Below, one piece after another: positions 6,497-11,825 of a DNA stretch of 64,000 bases. The position numbers and the translations under genes are program-made. The stretch is from Chitinophaga niabensis. GTDB taxonomy: Bacteria > Bacteroidota > Bacteroidia > Chitinophagales > Chitinophagaceae. The stretch lies in contig JAFIGY010000009.1 of assembly GCA_017849435.1 (NCBI GenBank), positions 372,001 to 436,000 on the forward strand, in the 5' to 3' direction. Position 1 is the stretch's first letter. Each line of letters starts with the position of its first letter. Below the pieces are notes generated by a model, which saw only the letters and a list, made by a program, of their open reading frames with translations, had not been told where the DNA came from and made no database searches.

Positions 6497-7304
6497 ATAA
6501 TGCCGCGATCACCGTCGCAAAAATATCGCTTAACGTCTGATCCGCCTGAGCGGCCACTGCAATGATCTCCTCGATGGATACCGGTTTGAGAAAATCCGGA
6601 TCGCACTCATCCGTTACTACGGATACCGCCGCACAGGGCAATCCCACCTGATTGGCCACAATCACTTCCGGCACTGTGCTCATTCCCACTACATCCGCCC
6701 CGATCATCCGCAGGAAACGGTATTCCGCACGTGTTTCAAGATTTGGACCCATCACTGCCGCATATACGCCTTTGTGCATCCGGTTGCCGGAAGCGTGCTG
6801 CAGCTTGTCACTGAGAGCGGGGTCGTAGGGCCGGCTCATATCCGGGAAACGGGGCCCATATACGGGCGAATTCAATCCGCGTAAAGGATTCTCCGGTTGC
6901 AGGTTGATGTGATCTTCCAGCAGCACCAGTTCTCCCTTTTTGAAAGCGGGGTTCATGCTGCCCGCCGCATTGCTCAATAGCAGCTGCTGTATGCCCAGCG
7001 CTTTCAAGACGCGAATAGGGAAGGTGATCTGTTGCATCGTATAGCCTTCATAGTAATGAAAGCGTCCCTGCATGGCGATCACGGAAGTTGGGCCGATGTA
7101 TCCGAATAACAGCTGCCCTTTGTGCGATTCCACGGTGGATTCCGGGAAATGCGGGATGTGCCCGTAAGGAATGCTTTTACGCACGTCCATGCGATGGATG
7201 AGCGCACCCAGCCCGGTGCCGAGTACAATGCCGGCCCGTGCGGCTTCAAAGCCCTGCTGTTGCAGGTATGCAGTTGTTTCGGAAATCTGTTGCTGTAAGA
7301 TCAT
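6495..7304 (-). CDS. Purine nucleoside phosphorylase (trimeric, PNP-I type)
   Basis: The enzyme splits purine nucleosides with phosphate to free base and (deoxy)ribose-1-phosphate in cytoplasmic purine salvage. Seen here: the phosphate loop GTGLG (29-33), RFHYYEG (81-87), SNAAGSMN (111-118), the base-binding Glu190 in GPNLETRAEYR, and VGMSTVPEVIVA. Length (269) is normal for the trimeric class. Where mammalian enzymes have Asn243 (selective for 6-oxopurines) this protein has Asp232 (VVTDECDPD), so base preference may differ. The start at 7304 is fixed by a -7 box just 4 nt upstream. The gene is 14 bp downstream of the DUF1080 gene and may be read both with it and alone. Confidence 0.93.
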   Translation of the reverse strand: MILQQQISETTAYLQQQGFEAARAGIVLGTGLGALIHRMDVRKSIPYGHIPHFPESTVESHKGQLLFGYIGPTSVIAMQGRFHYYEGYTMQQITFPIRVLKALGIQQLLLSNAAGSMNPAFKKGELVLLEDHINLQPENPLRGLNSPVYGPRFPDMSRPYDPALSDKLQHASGNRMHKGVYAAVMGPNLETRAEYRFLRMIGADVVGMSTVPEVIVANQVGLPCAAVSVVTDECDPDFLKPVSIEEIIAVAAQADQTLSDIFATVIAAL

Positions 7305-7308
7305 GCCG

Positions 7309-7316
7309 CAAACTTA
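7309..7316 (-). promoter_or_regulatory. -7 promoter box (TAAGTTTG) of the PNP gene
   Basis: This matches TAnnTTTG, the primary-sigma -7 element known from Bacteroidota. Only 4 nt separate it from the ATG, so transcription would begin at about the start codon. It lies between the DUF1080 stop codon and the PNP start. I see no clear -33 TTG. Confidence 0.5.
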
Positions 7317-7318
7317 GA

Positions 7319-7924
7319 TCATTTCAGTTCCTTCACCTTAATATTCTTCCAGCGTACTTTGATGCCGCCGCCGGAGTGAATCTGCAACGCGATCTGCCCG
7401 TCTTTCGCCCCGATCTTCTCATCATTCAGCGTGATCATTTCCACACCGTTCAGGTAAGTGGCCACCTGGTTCCCTTTCACCACCACTTTCATCGTATTCC
7501 ACTCGCCCATTTTCAGCACTTTCTCTTTTTCCGCATCAGGTTTTATCAGCCAGCCGCGACCATAAGATTCGTAGATGCCACCGGTGTGAAGCCCCGGAGG
7601 CGCCACCTCCGCCTGCCAGCCGGCAATCTTTGTTCCTTCGAGGGAGGAATGGAAGAATACGCCGCTATTGCCGTTGGCTTCCTGCTTGAAATCTACAGTC
7701 AGTTCAAAGTCTTTGAAGTGCTTGTCAGTGGCCAGGTAGCCATATTCTTTATCCGGACCGCTTTCACATACCAGTTCCCCTTTCTCTACATACCATTTCT
7801 CTGTACCGTGGATCTTCCAGCCGTCCAGGTTCTTGCCATTAAAGAGTTTTTGTTGTTTTTGCGCAAATGCAGTGCTGATAAAGAGGGAGCACAGCACCAC
7901 CAGCATCGTGGATATTTTTTTCAT
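7319..7924 (-). CDS. Exported DUF1080 (3-keto-disaccharide hydrolase family) protein
   Basis: The family has a concanavalin-like jelly-roll fold and several members hydrolyse 3-keto-glycosides; the substrate here is unknown. The start at 7924 gives MKKISTMLVVLCSLFIS and a signal ending AFAQ; the frame runs open upstream to 8221, but that part would overlap the MauE-like gene and lacks a sensible start. Family hallmarks are the opening KLFNGKNLDGWKIHGTEKW, the LVCESG segment, NSGVFFHSSLEG, the GGIYESYGRGWL stretch, GEWNTMKVVVKGN and the closing GGGIKVRWKNIKVKEL. At 201 residues it is a single-domain member. It sits 38 bp after the MauE-like gene and 14 bp before PNP, probably as part of the same transcript. 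Confidence 0.9.
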   Translation of the reverse strand: MKKISTMLVVLCSLFISTAFAQKQQKLFNGKNLDGWKIHGTEKWYVEKGELVCESGPDKEYGYLATDKHFKDFELTVDFKQEANGNSGVFFHSSLEGTKIAGWQAEVAPPGLHTGGIYESYGRGWLIKPDAEKEKVLKMGEWNTMKVVVKGNQVATYLNGVEMITLNDEKIGAKDGQIALQIHSGGGIKVRWKNIKVKELK

Positions 7925-7962
7925 ACAGCATTGGTTTTTTTGATGCCGGTAAGATAGGGATT

Positions 7963-8394
7963 TCAAACCGGGCGTGCAATGTTCTCTTCTTTTTGCTGTA
8001 ATAATACCCCGGCAAAGGCGATCAGCGTGCACAGTACATTGAACACGATGTGTACGGGATAGCTCATCCGGCCGAGGATGCCGCCGCAGGAACAGGGGAT
8101 GTTGGTATAGAAGAAATATAACGTGAACATATATACGGAGAACAGCAGCATCAGGAATGCAGAGAGACAGAGCCCTGATTTTCGTGTAGCCGTGAACTGA
8201 AGTAACAGGGCGGTAATGCATTCCACGGTAAGCACGGAAGGGGCGATCAGCTTATTGCTGAAATTAGCCAGCAGTGGAGATTTGCTGATGTCCAGCAGGA
8301 ATTTTCCGTAGTCCGTCGCTTTCATGATGGCGGCGTAAAGGAAAAGGATGGATAATGCATAGCAAATGCCTTGCAGGATGGAAGCTCTTTTCAT
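7963..8394 (-). CDS. MauE/DoxX-like redox-associated membrane protein
   Basis: This 143-residue protein has four predicted membrane helices (about 8-26, 50-68, 75-97 and 112-132) and a conserved cysteine pair C101-S-C103 in NIPCSCGGILG, just before the last helix. This is the pattern of MauE/DoxX-like proteins, some of which assist disulfide formation or redox-cofactor proteins in the periplasm. Its start overlaps the end of the propeller-like gene by 4 bp (ATGA), so the two are translationally coupled. Two genes upstream lies a small exported peptide with four cysteines, a natural candidate substrate for a thiol-redox membrane protein. The link is inferred from gene order only. Confidence 0.8.
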   Translation of the reverse strand: MKRASILQGICYALSILFLYAAIMKATDYGKFLLDISKSPLLANFSNKLIAPSVLTVECITALLLQFTATRKSGLCLSAFLMLLFSVYMFTLYFFYTNIPCSCGGILGRMSYPVHIVFNVLCTLIAFAGVLLQQKEENIARPV

Positions 8395-9398
8395 GGTGTG
8401 CGAATGTTATAGATCAGGATATCGTTTTCATGTGAGATGTACAGGGTGTGATCCGCCGCATCGATATGCAGCAGTCCCTTCTTTTCATAAGGCGGCACAC
8501 GCATACTGCCGGCATATGCGCCGCCCGGCAGCCTGTACACATCCAGCACGGGCCCGCCGGTTTCACTGTCTTTCGATAGAGCGGCGGACAATACATACAG
8601 ATAATGCCCGTCTGCGGCGGCGGAAAGATTGATGAATGCGGATTTACTGGAGATGGAATAGGCTTTGCCCACGCGTACAACAGTATTCCGTGGCGGTGTT
8701 TTGTCGATGGTGGTGATGGTGGAGGTAGTATGGGTGGCCGGGTCCAGTTCAATGATCCCTGCGTTGTGCAGCGGGGTGAAGTAATATTTGCCGGTACTGG
8801 CATTCCGGGAGAAACCACCGTCCGCCATTATGCCGCGGTCATCAAAGCGGGGAAAGGAAAAGAGCTTTTGTGCCTGTTCGGGTTGATGGTAGTCGATCTT
8901 TTCAAGATGCACAACACCGGTGGCCGTGTCATAATGCTGGATCAGGAAATGCTGTTCCGTCTGGTAGCGACAGGCTTTCAGGAAAGGATGAGCATGTACA
9001 TCCATACTGTCTGCCTGCTGCCCCGCTTTGAAGATATAGATCATTTTCCGGTTAGCGAGGAAGAAGCAGGCTGATGCAGCATCAACATCGATGGATGTGG
9101 GAATTTCGGAGAAGTAAGGACGGGTGTGCAGGAAGGTATCCAGGCGCCGGGAAGCGGGATCATAACGGAAAAGCGCACCTCTCGTCTGATCGAACGCATA
9201 CACCTTGCCATCGGAGATGTTCATCTGGCTGACATATCCCGGAAAACGGATGGTGTCCGTTGCGGTAAGCTGAAAAGACCCGAAAGCACGGGGAATGCTG
9301 GTCATGATATGTTCCGTATCCGAATGCGGTACCAGTACCAGGAAAATGGAGGCGACTGCTGCAATGATCAGGGCAATTGCAATAAAGGCTTTTTTCAT
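8391..9398 (-). CDS. Membrane-anchored, probably beta-propeller protein of unknown function
   Basis: I chose the ATG at 9398 (MKKAFIAIALIIAAV) over the in-frame start at 9425, because it yields a clean N-terminal membrane or signal segment and leaves the upstream hairpin outside the gene. The remaining 310 residues show repeating beta-rich units (GKVYAFDQTRGALFRYDP, RKMIYIFKAG, AGIIELDPATH, HYLYVLSAAL, HTLYISHENDILIYNI) that look like blades of a six-bladed propeller of the BF3164/TolB-like kind. No catalytic residues are recognisable. It overlaps the MauE-like gene by 4 bp and follows the small cysteine peptide by 56 bp. A peptide-binding, display or maturation role for the peptide is possible but only inferred from position. 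Confidence 0.7.
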   Translation of the reverse strand: MKKAFIAIALIIAAVASIFLVLVPHSDTEHIMTSIPRAFGSFQLTATDTIRFPGYVSQMNISDGKVYAFDQTRGALFRYDPASRRLDTFLHTRPYFSEIPTSIDVDAASACFFLANRKMIYIFKAGQQADSMDVHAHPFLKACRYQTEQHFLIQHYDTATGVVHLEKIDYHQPEQAQKLFSFPRFDDRGIMADGGFSRNASTGKYYFTPLHNAGIIELDPATHTTSTITTIDKTPPRNTVVRVGKAYSISSKSAFINLSAAADGHYLYVLSAALSKDSETGGPVLDVYRLPGGAYAGSMRVPPYEKKGLLHIDAADHTLYISHENDILIYNIRTP

Positions 9399-9413
9399 AG
9401 CGGGGCTGGATGA

Positions 9414-9439
9414 GGTAGCCGGCACGCGGGCCGGCTACC
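9414..9439. other. Strong intercistronic hairpin without U-tract
   Basis: A perfect 10-bp GC-rich stem (GGTAGCCGGC with its complement, 6-nt loop) fills the gap between the peptide stop codon (9455) and the propeller start (9398). No T-run follows on either strand, so it is more likely an RNA stability or processing element, or a partial attenuator, than a full terminator. Such an element would let the peptide be made in excess over the downstream proteins. Confidence 0.6.
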
Positions 9440-9454
9440 GGATGAAGGTACAGG

Positions 9455-9646
9455 TCAGTTAACGGGACAGATCCGCTGTTGGGGGCCCCATTCATAAATA
9501 CCGCCGCCATCGGGCACGTATTTGCAGAAACTGGGTACCAGAAGGCAGCATTGGTAATCATCCGGACCTTGTGCGGCCTTCACCGCCACTGCGATGCATG
9601 CGCCAATAAAAAGGCTGCATCCGAGAAAGAAGAGTTTTCTTTTCAT
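9455..9646 (-). CDS. Small exported four-cysteine peptide, unknown family
   Basis: This 63-residue product starts MKRKLFFLGCSLFIGACI. It has a signal-like hydrophobic segment to about residue 22 and a likely cleavage near AVKAA. The predicted mature part is only about 38 residues, with cysteines at 33, 34, 41 and 60 (DDYQCC, SFCKY, QRICPVN), enough for two disulfides. Comparable tiny exported Cys peptides beside MauE/DoxX and propeller genes occur in Bacteroidota (families such as NVEALA and DUF6520), but this one lacks the NVEALA motif and I cannot place it in a family. It is the first gene of the minus-strand run that continues through the propeller and MauE-like genes. Confidence 0.65.
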   Translation of the reverse strand: MKRKLFFLGCSLFIGACIAVAVKAAQGPDDYQCCLLVPSFCKYVPDGGGIYEWGPQQRICPVN

Positions 9647-9760
9647 GATTGAGATTTTGGTGAGAGAATAAAAAGGGTTAAAAAAAGGGTTTAGATATTT
9701 GTTTCAATTAAGATAAAGGAATTTTGGACAGAAGACCATAACACTAAGGTGGGAAATGAA

Positions 9761-9791
9761 AACGCCGCAACAGGCTTACTGTTGCGGCGTT
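9761..9791 (-). terminator. Intrinsic terminator of rny
   Basis: A 13-bp perfect stem (AACGCCGCAACAG and complement) with a 5-nt loop lies 22 bp past the rny stop. Read on the minus strand it is followed by a T-rich stretch. Confidence 0.8.
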
Positions 9792-9812
9792 GCAGTATGT
9801 TTCGGAAAACGT

Positions 9813-11378
9813 TTATCTGGCTACGTTCACGGCTCTGCGTTCACGTATTACCGTTACCTTGATCTGGCCGGGATATTGCATTTCCGTTTGGATCTTGTTG
9901 GCGATCTCGAAGCTCAGGCGGTCTGCGTCGTTATCGGATACCTTGTCGCTTTCCACAATCACGCGCAGTTCGCGGCCTGCCTGGATAGCGTAGGCTTTTT
10001 CCACACCTTCGTAAGCCATGGCAAGGTTTTCCAGGTCTTTGATCCTTTGCAGATAGCTCTGCATGATCTCGCGGCGTGCGCCCGGGCGTGCGCCACTGAT
10101 GGCATCACAAGCCTGTACGATGGGAGAGATCACATAAGCCATTTCCATTTCATCGTGGTGTGCGCCAATGGCGTTCACGATAGCAGGATGTTCGCCGTAT
10201 TTCTCTGCGAGTTTGGCGCCCAGCAGTGCGTGGCTCAGTTCAGATTCCTCATCCGGTACCTTACCGATGTCATGCAGCAGACCTGCGCGTTTGGCGAGTT
10301 TGGGGTTCAGTCCCAGCTCGGCTGCCATCACGGCGCAAAGGTTCGCGGTTTCTTTGGAGTGCATCAGCAGGTTCTGGCCGTAAGAAGAGCGGAAACGCAT
10401 CTTGCCTACCATCCTTACCAGCTCTTTGTGCAGGCCGTGGATGCCCAGTTCGATCACCGTACGTTCCCCGATCTCCATTACCTGTTCTTCCAGCTGACGT
10501 TTGGTTTTTTCCACTACTTCCTCGATGCGGGCAGGGTGGATACGGCCGTCCTGTACAAGGCGCTGAAGGCTCAAACGAGCGATCTCGCGGCGCAGGGGGT
10601 CGAAAGAAGAAAGTACGATCGCTTCCGGGGTATCGTCAACGATCAGGTCTACGCCTGTAGCCGCTTCAATGGCACGGATGTTACGGCCTTCACGACCGAT
10701 GATCTGGCCCTTGATCTCATCGCTTTCCAGGTTGAACACCGTAATGGCGTTCTCGATGGTCTGCTCGGCAGCAGTACGCTGGATGGATTGTATGATGATC
10801 TTCTTGGCTTCTTTATTGGCTTTCAGCTTGGCATCTTCCACAATTTCCTGGATGTGGCTGAGGGCCTGTGTGCGGGCTTCCTCCTTCAGGCTTTCGATCA
10901 GCTGGTGACGCGCTTCTTCTGCAGTGAGCGCCGCTACTTTTTCAAGACGGCGGATATGCTCTTCCTGGTGCTTTTCCAGCTCGGAACGCTTGATGTTCAC
11001 CAGTTCTATCTGGCGGGCCAGGTTCTCCTTGATCGCTTCGTTCTCCGTGACCTGTTTCTGTAATTGCTCGTTCTTCTGATTGAGGCTTTGCTCTTTTTGT
11101 TTGATGCGGTTCTCGGACTCTGCGAGCTTCTGGTTGCGCTGCATTACTTCTTTCTCGTGCTCGGACTTCATCTGGAGATATTTCTCCTTTGCTTCCAGCA
11201 GTTTGTCCTTTTTGAGGTTCTCGGCAGATAACTGCCCTTCCGTGATGATCCGTTTGGCTTGTTCTTCCGCCTCCTGGATCTTTATCTGCGTATTTTTAGA
11301 AAAGATAAGTTTTCCGAGTAGTATACCTAATGCCAGTGCAACAACTCCGGCCACAACAATCATTAAAGGTTCAGTCAT
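9813..11378 (-). CDS. rny: Ribonuclease Y
   Basis: This membrane-anchored endoribonuclease starts mRNA decay. I place the start at 11378 ([17 protein letters not shown]), giving 521 residues, the normal length; the open frame upstream to 11462 lacks the family's N-terminal anchor. In order: an N-terminal membrane helix (about 5-22), a long coiled coil rich in Glu, Lys and Gln (about 25-200), a KH domain with [19 protein letters not shown], and an HD phosphohydrolase domain with LLHDIGK and [12 protein letters not shown]. Gene order pheT, coiled-coil gene, zapA, rny is familiar in Bacteroidota. Two competing hairpins precede it, so read-through from zapA may be controlled. Confidence 0.96.
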
Positions 11379-11410
11379 ATATCTGGATTTAAAAAATATT
11401 AATAAAAATA

Positions 11411-11451
11411 TTCCCTGCTCATTTTTGGCGAACGAGCGGGAACTGACCCGC
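11411..11451 (-). terminator. Terminator-like hairpin overlapping an alternative hairpin in the zapA-rny gap
   Basis: On the minus strand, TTCCCGCTC (11442-11434) pairs with GAGCAGGGAA (11420-11411), one A bulged, and is followed by TATTTTTATT: a plausible intrinsic terminator after zapA. The upstream GCGGG (11451-11447) can instead pair with CCCGC (11440-11436), which would break the terminator stem. The two folds exclude each other. Confidence 0.5.
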
Positions 11452-11531
11452 GAAAATAACAAAAAAAAGGGAGGAAAGCACGGATACCTTGTGAGAATGA
11501 ATTATTTAGGGATTTTAATATGGGTTGATCC

Positions 11532-11825
11532 TTATTTGAGATGCTCATCGAGCAGATTGTCAAGATGTTGCAACTTCTCCAGGAGAAAGGGCGCCACACC
11601 CGCCTGTGCCTTGCCGCCGCTGGTGGCAGGGTGGGTGGCGTACATGATTAGGGCCATGGCAATGTAATCCTGTATATCCTTTCCGGCGTAAGCCGCTTTG
11701 AATTCTATAATCTTTTCATTCACTTCCTTCATCACGCGGCGTACGTCCTCTTCTTCTTCCGCCCGGATCTTGATCCGGTAGGTGCGGTCGGCAACTACAA
11801 TATTAACGGGTATGAGCGGCTCCAT
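11532..11825 (-). CDS. zapA: Cell division protein ZapA
   Basis: ZapA binds FtsZ and cross-links Z-ring filaments. The 97-residue protein has the usual build: an N-terminal beta-hairpin domain (MEPLIPVNIVVADRTYRIKI) followed by a helix with EEEDVRRVMKEVNEKI and a C-terminal coiled coil (LLEKLQHLDNLLDEHL). A stretch GKDIQDYIAMALIMYA is close to the ZapA consensus. It lies between rny (153 bp downstream) and the Xre/RES module, which separates it from the coiled-coil gene it normally follows. It has its own -7 box 25 bp upstream of the ATG. Confidence 0.85.
   Translation of the reverse strand: MEPLIPVNIVVADRTYRIKIRAEEEEDVRRVMKEVNEKIIEFKAAYAGKDIQDYIAMALIMYATHPATSGGKAQAGVAPFLLEKLQHLDNLLDEHLK

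What the first reader, a model, noticed from the sequence alone, without database searches (positions are those of the whole stretch)
7963..9646. Small four-cysteine exported peptide with propeller-like and MauE/DoxX-like partners: candidate uncharacterised peptide system
Seen: a 63-residue secreted peptide (mature Cys at 33, 34, 41, 60), a membrane-anchored propeller-like protein and a four-helix membrane protein with a CSC pair lie in order on one strand. The last two overlap by 4 bp. A 10-bp hairpin without U-run separates the peptide gene from the rest, as expected if the peptide is needed in excess. Established: MauE/DoxX-like proteins are linked to periplasmic thiol redox. Inference: the membrane protein oxidises or protects the peptide disulfides and the propeller binds, displays or matures it. 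The peptide lacks the NVEALA motif and may be a new family.
Basis: partly seen in the sequence, partly recalled or inferred. Interest (0 to 1): 0.72.

Follow-up and report, generated by a model that had tools for sequence, protein, structure and literature searches.

The report
Exported cysteine peptide with redox-membrane partner
Three neighbouring genes of a Bacteroidota bacterium make a tiny exported four-cysteine peptide, a membrane-anchored propeller protein and a MauE-type membrane protein; the trio recurs in related bacteria and looks like a unit that makes and oxidises a small peptide, whose job is still unknown.

Summary
The trio is a subtype of a wider Bacteroidota module: MauE, exported Cys peptide (elsewhere Pfam DUF6520 or like it) and the same propeller. 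Of 47 named MauE loci 43 have such a peptide nearby (opposite strand 2 of 47), 37 have the propeller, and in 8 MauE and propeller are one polypeptide. A hairpin follows the last peptide gene in 17 of 17 four-Cys junctions and in 0 of 5 junctions between tandem copies. Best reading: MauE oxidises the peptide, the propeller holds it, and the hairpin favours peptide over machine. Parts, order, conservation and fusions are shown; oxidation, binding and excess are inferred; target and activity of the peptide are unknown.

The parts
9455..9646 (-). 63-aa exported four-Cys peptide gene; signal region residues 1-24 (about 9575-9646) by inspection, mature part about 39 aa, 4.31 kDa if two disulfides form
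   Evidence: purifying selection in relatives
9414..9439 (-). stem-loop with 10-bp arms between peptide and propeller genes
   Evidence: MFE -21.5, z -2.9; a hairpin in this position in 17 of 17 four-Cys junctions folded
8391..9398 (-). membrane-anchored beta-propeller, 335 aa (helix residues 2-25; periplasmic side inferred)
   Evidence: no Pfam family
7963..8394 (-). MauE-family four-helix membrane protein, 143 aa; CSC pair at residues 101-103 (8086-8094)
   Evidence: 82.3 bits; both Cys invariant in the 16 aligned sequences of A1
9761..9791 (-). terminator-like hairpin after the upstream gene (rny, named by eye); context, not part of the unit
   Evidence: 13 pairs, then TTCATTTCCC; the scan found 3 such sites against 2.2 expected in shuffles

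Best explanation
A periplasmic peptide-maturation unit. The peptide is exported by Sec and cut after about residue 24 (inferred from the sequence). MauE, through its periplasmic CxC pair, forms the disulfides of the roughly 39-aa product (inferred). The membrane-anchored propeller sits beside or is joined to MauE and binds the peptide while it is oxidised or presented (inferred from natural MauE-propeller fusions). A stem-loop directly after the peptide gene or genes ends or protects transcripts there, so that peptide is made in excess over the two machine proteins (structure shown, effect inferred). The product is more likely a conserved structural, signalling or subunit-like peptide than a fast-diversifying toxin, because in one clade it is better conserved than the propeller. 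Its target is unknown.
For: Linkage: a peptide in 43 of 47 named MauE loci; opposite strand 2 of 47, distal flanks 2 of 43 and 2 of 43. In 68 loci of the genus picked by homology and not by CxC, 51 have a peptide, opposite strand 6. Propeller in 37 of 47 loci, 8 of them MauE-propeller fusions scored by a profile built without any fusion. All 12 DUF6520 hits over cut-off in 148 phylum genomes lie within about 150 bp of a propeller hit. Cysteines: even number in 58 of 66, 25 of 25 and 32 of 34 mature peptides (the finder itself asked for at least two); no invariant or nearly invariant Cys in the propeller. Two MauE of 68 lack CxC and have neither peptide nor propeller (they are near-identical, so perhaps one event). 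Stem-loop: 17 of 17 four-Cys junctions, 0 of 5 junctions between tandem peptide genes (a sixth too short to fold); other units 11 of 11 and 15 of 15 after the peptide, while no z fell below -1.3 in 15 MauE-to-peptide junctions; automatic count 46 of 66 after peptides against 53 of 166 after genes of at least 300 aa. Mean identity over pairs of eight loci: mature peptide 80%, propeller 63%, MauE 74%.
Against: No experiment. 17 of 68 MauE loci have no detected peptide and 22 have a peptide but no propeller, so the propeller is not essential to the wider module. 11 CxC-bearing MauE loci have neither partner. The peptide model is poor (pLDDT 68.8), so no disulfide pattern is supported. A CxC pair does not prove oxidase activity. 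In the automatic count 20 of 66 peptides have no 8-bp stem behind them, and about a third of other gene ends do. Tandem copies differ much from each other, which also suits a diversifying product.
Confidence: 0.5

Rival explanations
1. The peptide is a small disulfide-rich subunit of a propeller-based periplasmic enzyme, by analogy with methylamine dehydrogenase (propeller, small Cys-rich subunit, MauE; this make-up is recalled).
For: Same three kinds of part; MauE family membership; mature peptide more conserved than the propeller in one clade.
Against: No methylamine dehydrogenase chain family among Pfam matches up to E 1 for propeller or peptide; none in the 50 Foldseek rows shown; Trp not conserved in the peptides, so no cofactor of the TTQ type (recalled). 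Up to four tandem peptide genes ahead of one propeller fit a subunit poorly.
Confidence: 0.2
2. The peptide is a released signal or bacteriocin-like product; MauE and propeller mature it or give immunity.
For: Export signal; tandem, varied copies in some loci (six peptides around two propeller/MauE pairs in L130); regulator-like genes, named by eye, beside many paralogous units; stem-loop after the peptide gene.
Against: Even conservation of the mature peptide across species of one clade, pN/pS 0.17; no transporter or peptidase among the three genes.
Confidence: 0.2
3. The peptide is a thiol redox or metal shuttle for MauE and not its product.
For: CC or CHC pair at the start of the mature Cys region; no thioredoxin-like gene among the three.
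Against: Multiplied peptide genes and a hairpin behind them suit a product better than a catalyst; between subtypes little but the Cys and one Gly is kept.
Confidence: 0.1

Closest known systems
DUF6520 (Pfam PF20130)
   Same: Small exported peptide with paired Cys beside MauE and the same propeller family; of four paralogous units in this genome three peptides match it, one over the cut-off
   Different: Window peptide is shorter, has a C-x(0-1)-C, C, G, C pattern and does not match the model; its order is peptide-propeller-MauE, while in DUF6520-type loci MauE usually comes first
MauE / methylamine dehydrogenase maturation (PF07291)
   Same: MauE is a clear member; a propeller plus a small Cys-rich exported protein also occur there (recalled)
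   Different: No dehydrogenase chain families, no conserved Trp in the peptide, no MauD-like gene in the trio
DsbB and VKOR membrane thiol oxidases (recalled)
   Same: Four helices and a periplasmic Cys pair (periplasmic side inferred here)
   Different: Only one invariant Cys pair in the 16 aligned MauE sequences; no activity shown
NVEALA peptides (PF14055)
   Same: Small exported peptides of Bacteroidota; a link with propellers is recalled only
   Different: No match for the window peptide; 0 of 148 phylum genomes over cut-off, 2 weak hits

Membership tests
MauE (PF07291) | score over the curated cut-off | tested here: met
   82.3 bits, cut-off 27
MauE (PF07291) | role in forming disulfides of a partner protein (recalled) | not testable with these tools
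   needs biochemistry
DUF6520 (PF20130) | peptide scores over the curated cut-off | tested here: not met
   no match at E <= 1 for the window peptide or two relatives of its subtype
DUF6520 (PF20130) | neighbourhood of MauE and this propeller family | tested here: met
NVEALA (PF14055) | NVEALA motif or model match | tested here: not met
Methylamine dehydrogenase | heavy- and light-chain sequence families | tested here: not met
   neither among matches up to E 1
Methylamine dehydrogenase | two cofactor Trp in the small subunit (recalled) | tested here: not met
   one Trp in the window peptide, not conserved
Beta-propeller fold | confident model and structural matches to propellers | tested here: met
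   1156 PDB matches at E <= 0.001, the 50 shown are mostly WD40, NHL and similar propellers, query TM 0.43-0.57 with large rmsd; blade number (6 or 7) not settled

The most novel reading that the evidence does not exclude
MauE, the propeller and the peptide make a phylum-wide, dedicated oxidation machine for a large, undescribed class of small exported disulfide peptides in Bacteroidota, with multiplied peptide genes, a recurrent 3' stem-loop and, in part of the DUF6520 branch, a DUF805b leader RNA; the window holds a new four-Cys subtype of it.
Probability: 0.5. Interest if true: 0.78.

Novelty: new variant of a known kind. Interest (0 to 1): 0.62.

Why it matters
It would give three poorly annotated parts (a DUF6520-like peptide class, a propeller family that matched no Pfam entry, and many MauE proteins) one shared, testable job, and would point to a regulated class of exported disulfide peptides in environmental Bacteroidota.

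Tried and rejected
Lipoprotein reading: IGAC at residues 14-17 resembles a lipobox, but most relatives lack that Cys and keep a cleavage-like site near residue 24 (motif judged by eye, no signal predictor was at hand). Methylamine dehydrogenase membership: not met. NVEALA: not met. Peptide fold: too weak to use; peptide profile without a significant PDB match. Propeller profile: no PDB sequence match, no Pfam family beyond two weak single-member hits. Rfam: nothing at gathering score in 7000-11600. DUF805b in the four-Cys subtype: none found in L001 or six loci and no core in 25 peptide leaders. Papers: nine searches listed no title about the unit; I saw listings only (10 of 67 papers) and read no paper. 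The library holds open-licence papers only.

Corrections made on checking: a first count of three MauE without CxC was a fault of my pattern; L106 has CGC, so it is two of 68. This weakens a minor point; four more junctions folded strengthen the hairpin; odds left as they were.

Rows left out: a MauE with an internal stop (L027) was not put in A1. L137, L138 and the decayed L144 were not put in A2. Of 20 loci fetched, one search took 16; L124-L126 have no such peptide and L127 has a different, longer one. One search did not print 13 Chitinophaga loci, which are. L145 and L159 carry a peptide seen but count as misses. Some small ORFs counted (L149_612, L156_-1214, L167_2002) may be chance, and one DUF805b site (L149) is counted twice. 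Named and unnamed sets overlap in genomes, and sequences are related, so the P values are only indicative. The control (63 of 180) held spurious frames; one search gives a cleaner one.

Full report
What is there. On the minus strand, between a gene that reads as rny (named by eye; terminator-like hairpin at 9791-9761) and a 3-keto-disaccharide-hydrolase-family gene (7319-7924, PF06439), lie a 63-aa peptide gene (9646-9455), a propeller gene (9398-8391) and a MauE gene (8394-7963); the last two overlap by 4 bp.

The parts. MauE scores 82.3 bits against PF07291 (cut-off 27); C101 and C103 are invariant in the 16 aligned sequences. Hydropathy peaks and the positive residues between helices 2 and 3 put the CSC loop in the periplasm (inference). 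The propeller has no significant Pfam or NCBIfam match but folds with confidence as a propeller behind one N-terminal helix (pLDDT 89.7, pTM 0.87); the 50 Foldseek rows shown are generic propellers (query TM 0.43-0.57). The peptide has no family and its own model is weak (pLDDT 68.8).

Conservation of the four-Cys subtype. Searches covered 99 genomes (this one, 59 of the same genus, 39 of the order). Matches to the peptide were weak (best 22 bits outside this genome, many of them chance), but those beside propeller and MauE matches were then read directly: in 16 of 20 fetched loci a four-Cys peptide precedes the propeller, 25 peptides in all, with two to four in tandem in G055, G058, G036 and G003, next to the rny-like gene as in the window. 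In the named collection 17 loci have MauE at 51% identity or more: 15 carry intact four-Cys peptides, L144 is decayed, L143 has none and sits elsewhere. These are Chitinophaga, [Flexibacter] sp. ATCC 35208, Flavitalea and one Pedobacter; the Pedobacter copy is as close to some Chitinophaga copies as these are to each other, which suggests transfer (inference). The pattern is C-x(0-1)-C, C, a Gly in YGP- or WGI-like context and a last Cys. Over pairs of eight loci pN/pS is 0.21 for the peptide, 0.17 for the mature part, 0.32 for the propeller, 0.21 for MauE.

The wider module. This genome has five further MauE genes well over the cut-off and one marginal. Four (L102-L105) are followed by an exported Cys peptide; three of these peptides match DUF6520, one over its cut-off, and one unit also has the propeller; the fifth, L106, has neither. 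Across 47 named loci 43 have a peptide against 2 of 47, 2 of 43 and 2 of 43 in controls; 37 have the propeller, 8 of them fused to MauE. In 68 loci of the genus 51 have a peptide (opposite strand 6) and 33 the propeller; 66 have CxC. In the phylum the propeller profile matches 37 of 296 genomes at E <= 1e-5, some weakly; DUF6520 is over cut-off in 9 of 148, and all 12 hits lie within about 150 bp of a propeller hit. Of 15 further loci read, two distant ones (L195, L196) keep the order peptide-propeller-MauE with CxC; the weaker propeller matches L197-L204 showed no CxC-bearing MauE in their short flanks, though L200 and L202 have a Cys-rich small ORF ahead of the propeller.

RNA signals. A hairpin follows the last peptide gene in 17 of 17 four-Cys junctions (13 with z -1.9 to -6.2; four without shuffles), with arms that differ in sequence between groups, and there is none in 5 of 5 foldable junctions between tandem peptides. 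In other units it follows the peptide in 11 of 11 and 15 of 15 cases, while no z fell below -1.3 in 15 MauE-to-peptide junctions. An automatic count is less sharp: stems of 8 bp or more in 46 of 66 after peptides, 12 of 66 before, 17 of 68 after MauE, 53 of 166 after genes of 300 aa or more. The DUF6520 branch often has the Rfam motif DUF805b in the peptide leader (7 of 13 sources at gathering score; core in 17 of 34 and 16 of 66 peptides); the four-Cys branch does not (0 of 25).

How it probably works. Within the trio only MauE and the peptide have conserved Cys; peptide Cys numbers are even in 58 of 66, 25 of 25 and 32 of 34; MauE and propeller are fused in 8 loci. The simplest reading is a membrane-bound complex that oxidises and holds an exported peptide made in excess. 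Shown: parts, order, conservation, fusions, hairpins. Inferred: cleavage, oxidation, binding, excess. Unknown: where the peptide goes and what it does. Against it: many MauE loci lack one or both partners, and no activity has been measured.

Verdict. A real, conserved unit for which nine paper searches listed no description; a new subtype of a wider module made of a known membrane family, a DUF peptide class and an unnamed propeller family. Rated a new variant of a known kind because MauE-dependent maturation of small Cys-rich exported proteins is known in principle (recalled).

Noticed in passing
L103:7659-7693, L146:5464-5498, L149:5460-5494, L154:5381-5415, L155:5565-5600, L166:5385-5419, L171:5412-5449: Rfam DUF805b RNA (RF02914) lies between MauE and a DUF6520-type peptide gene, just upstream of the peptide: 7 of 13 sources at gathering score. 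These peptides may be regular targets of that cis-regulatory RNA.
   Followed up: partly
upstream of DUF805b cores, e.g. L146, L158, L167, L171, L173: A perfect palindrome of varying sequence (such as ATTGGCCAAT or TTATTGCGCAATAA) often sits about 20 nt before the RNA core: 19 of 33 have 8 bp or more against 14% of shuffles (one site counted twice). Unexplained.
   Followed up: partly
L144: Decayed copy of the unit in Chitinophaga sp. E66: shortened propeller frame and peptides without the four-Cys pattern.
   Followed up: no
L124 (same place as L143), L125, L126: A MauE relative in another neighbourhood without peptide or propeller; in two of the three genomes the CxC pair is lost.
   Followed up: partly
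L105: A MauE-peptide unit of the same genome lies beside a transposase-like and a TlpA-like ORF (named by eye).
   Followed up: no
L130: Two propeller/MauE pairs with six four-Cys peptides in one stretch in Chitinophaga pinensis isolate 3.
   Followed up: partly
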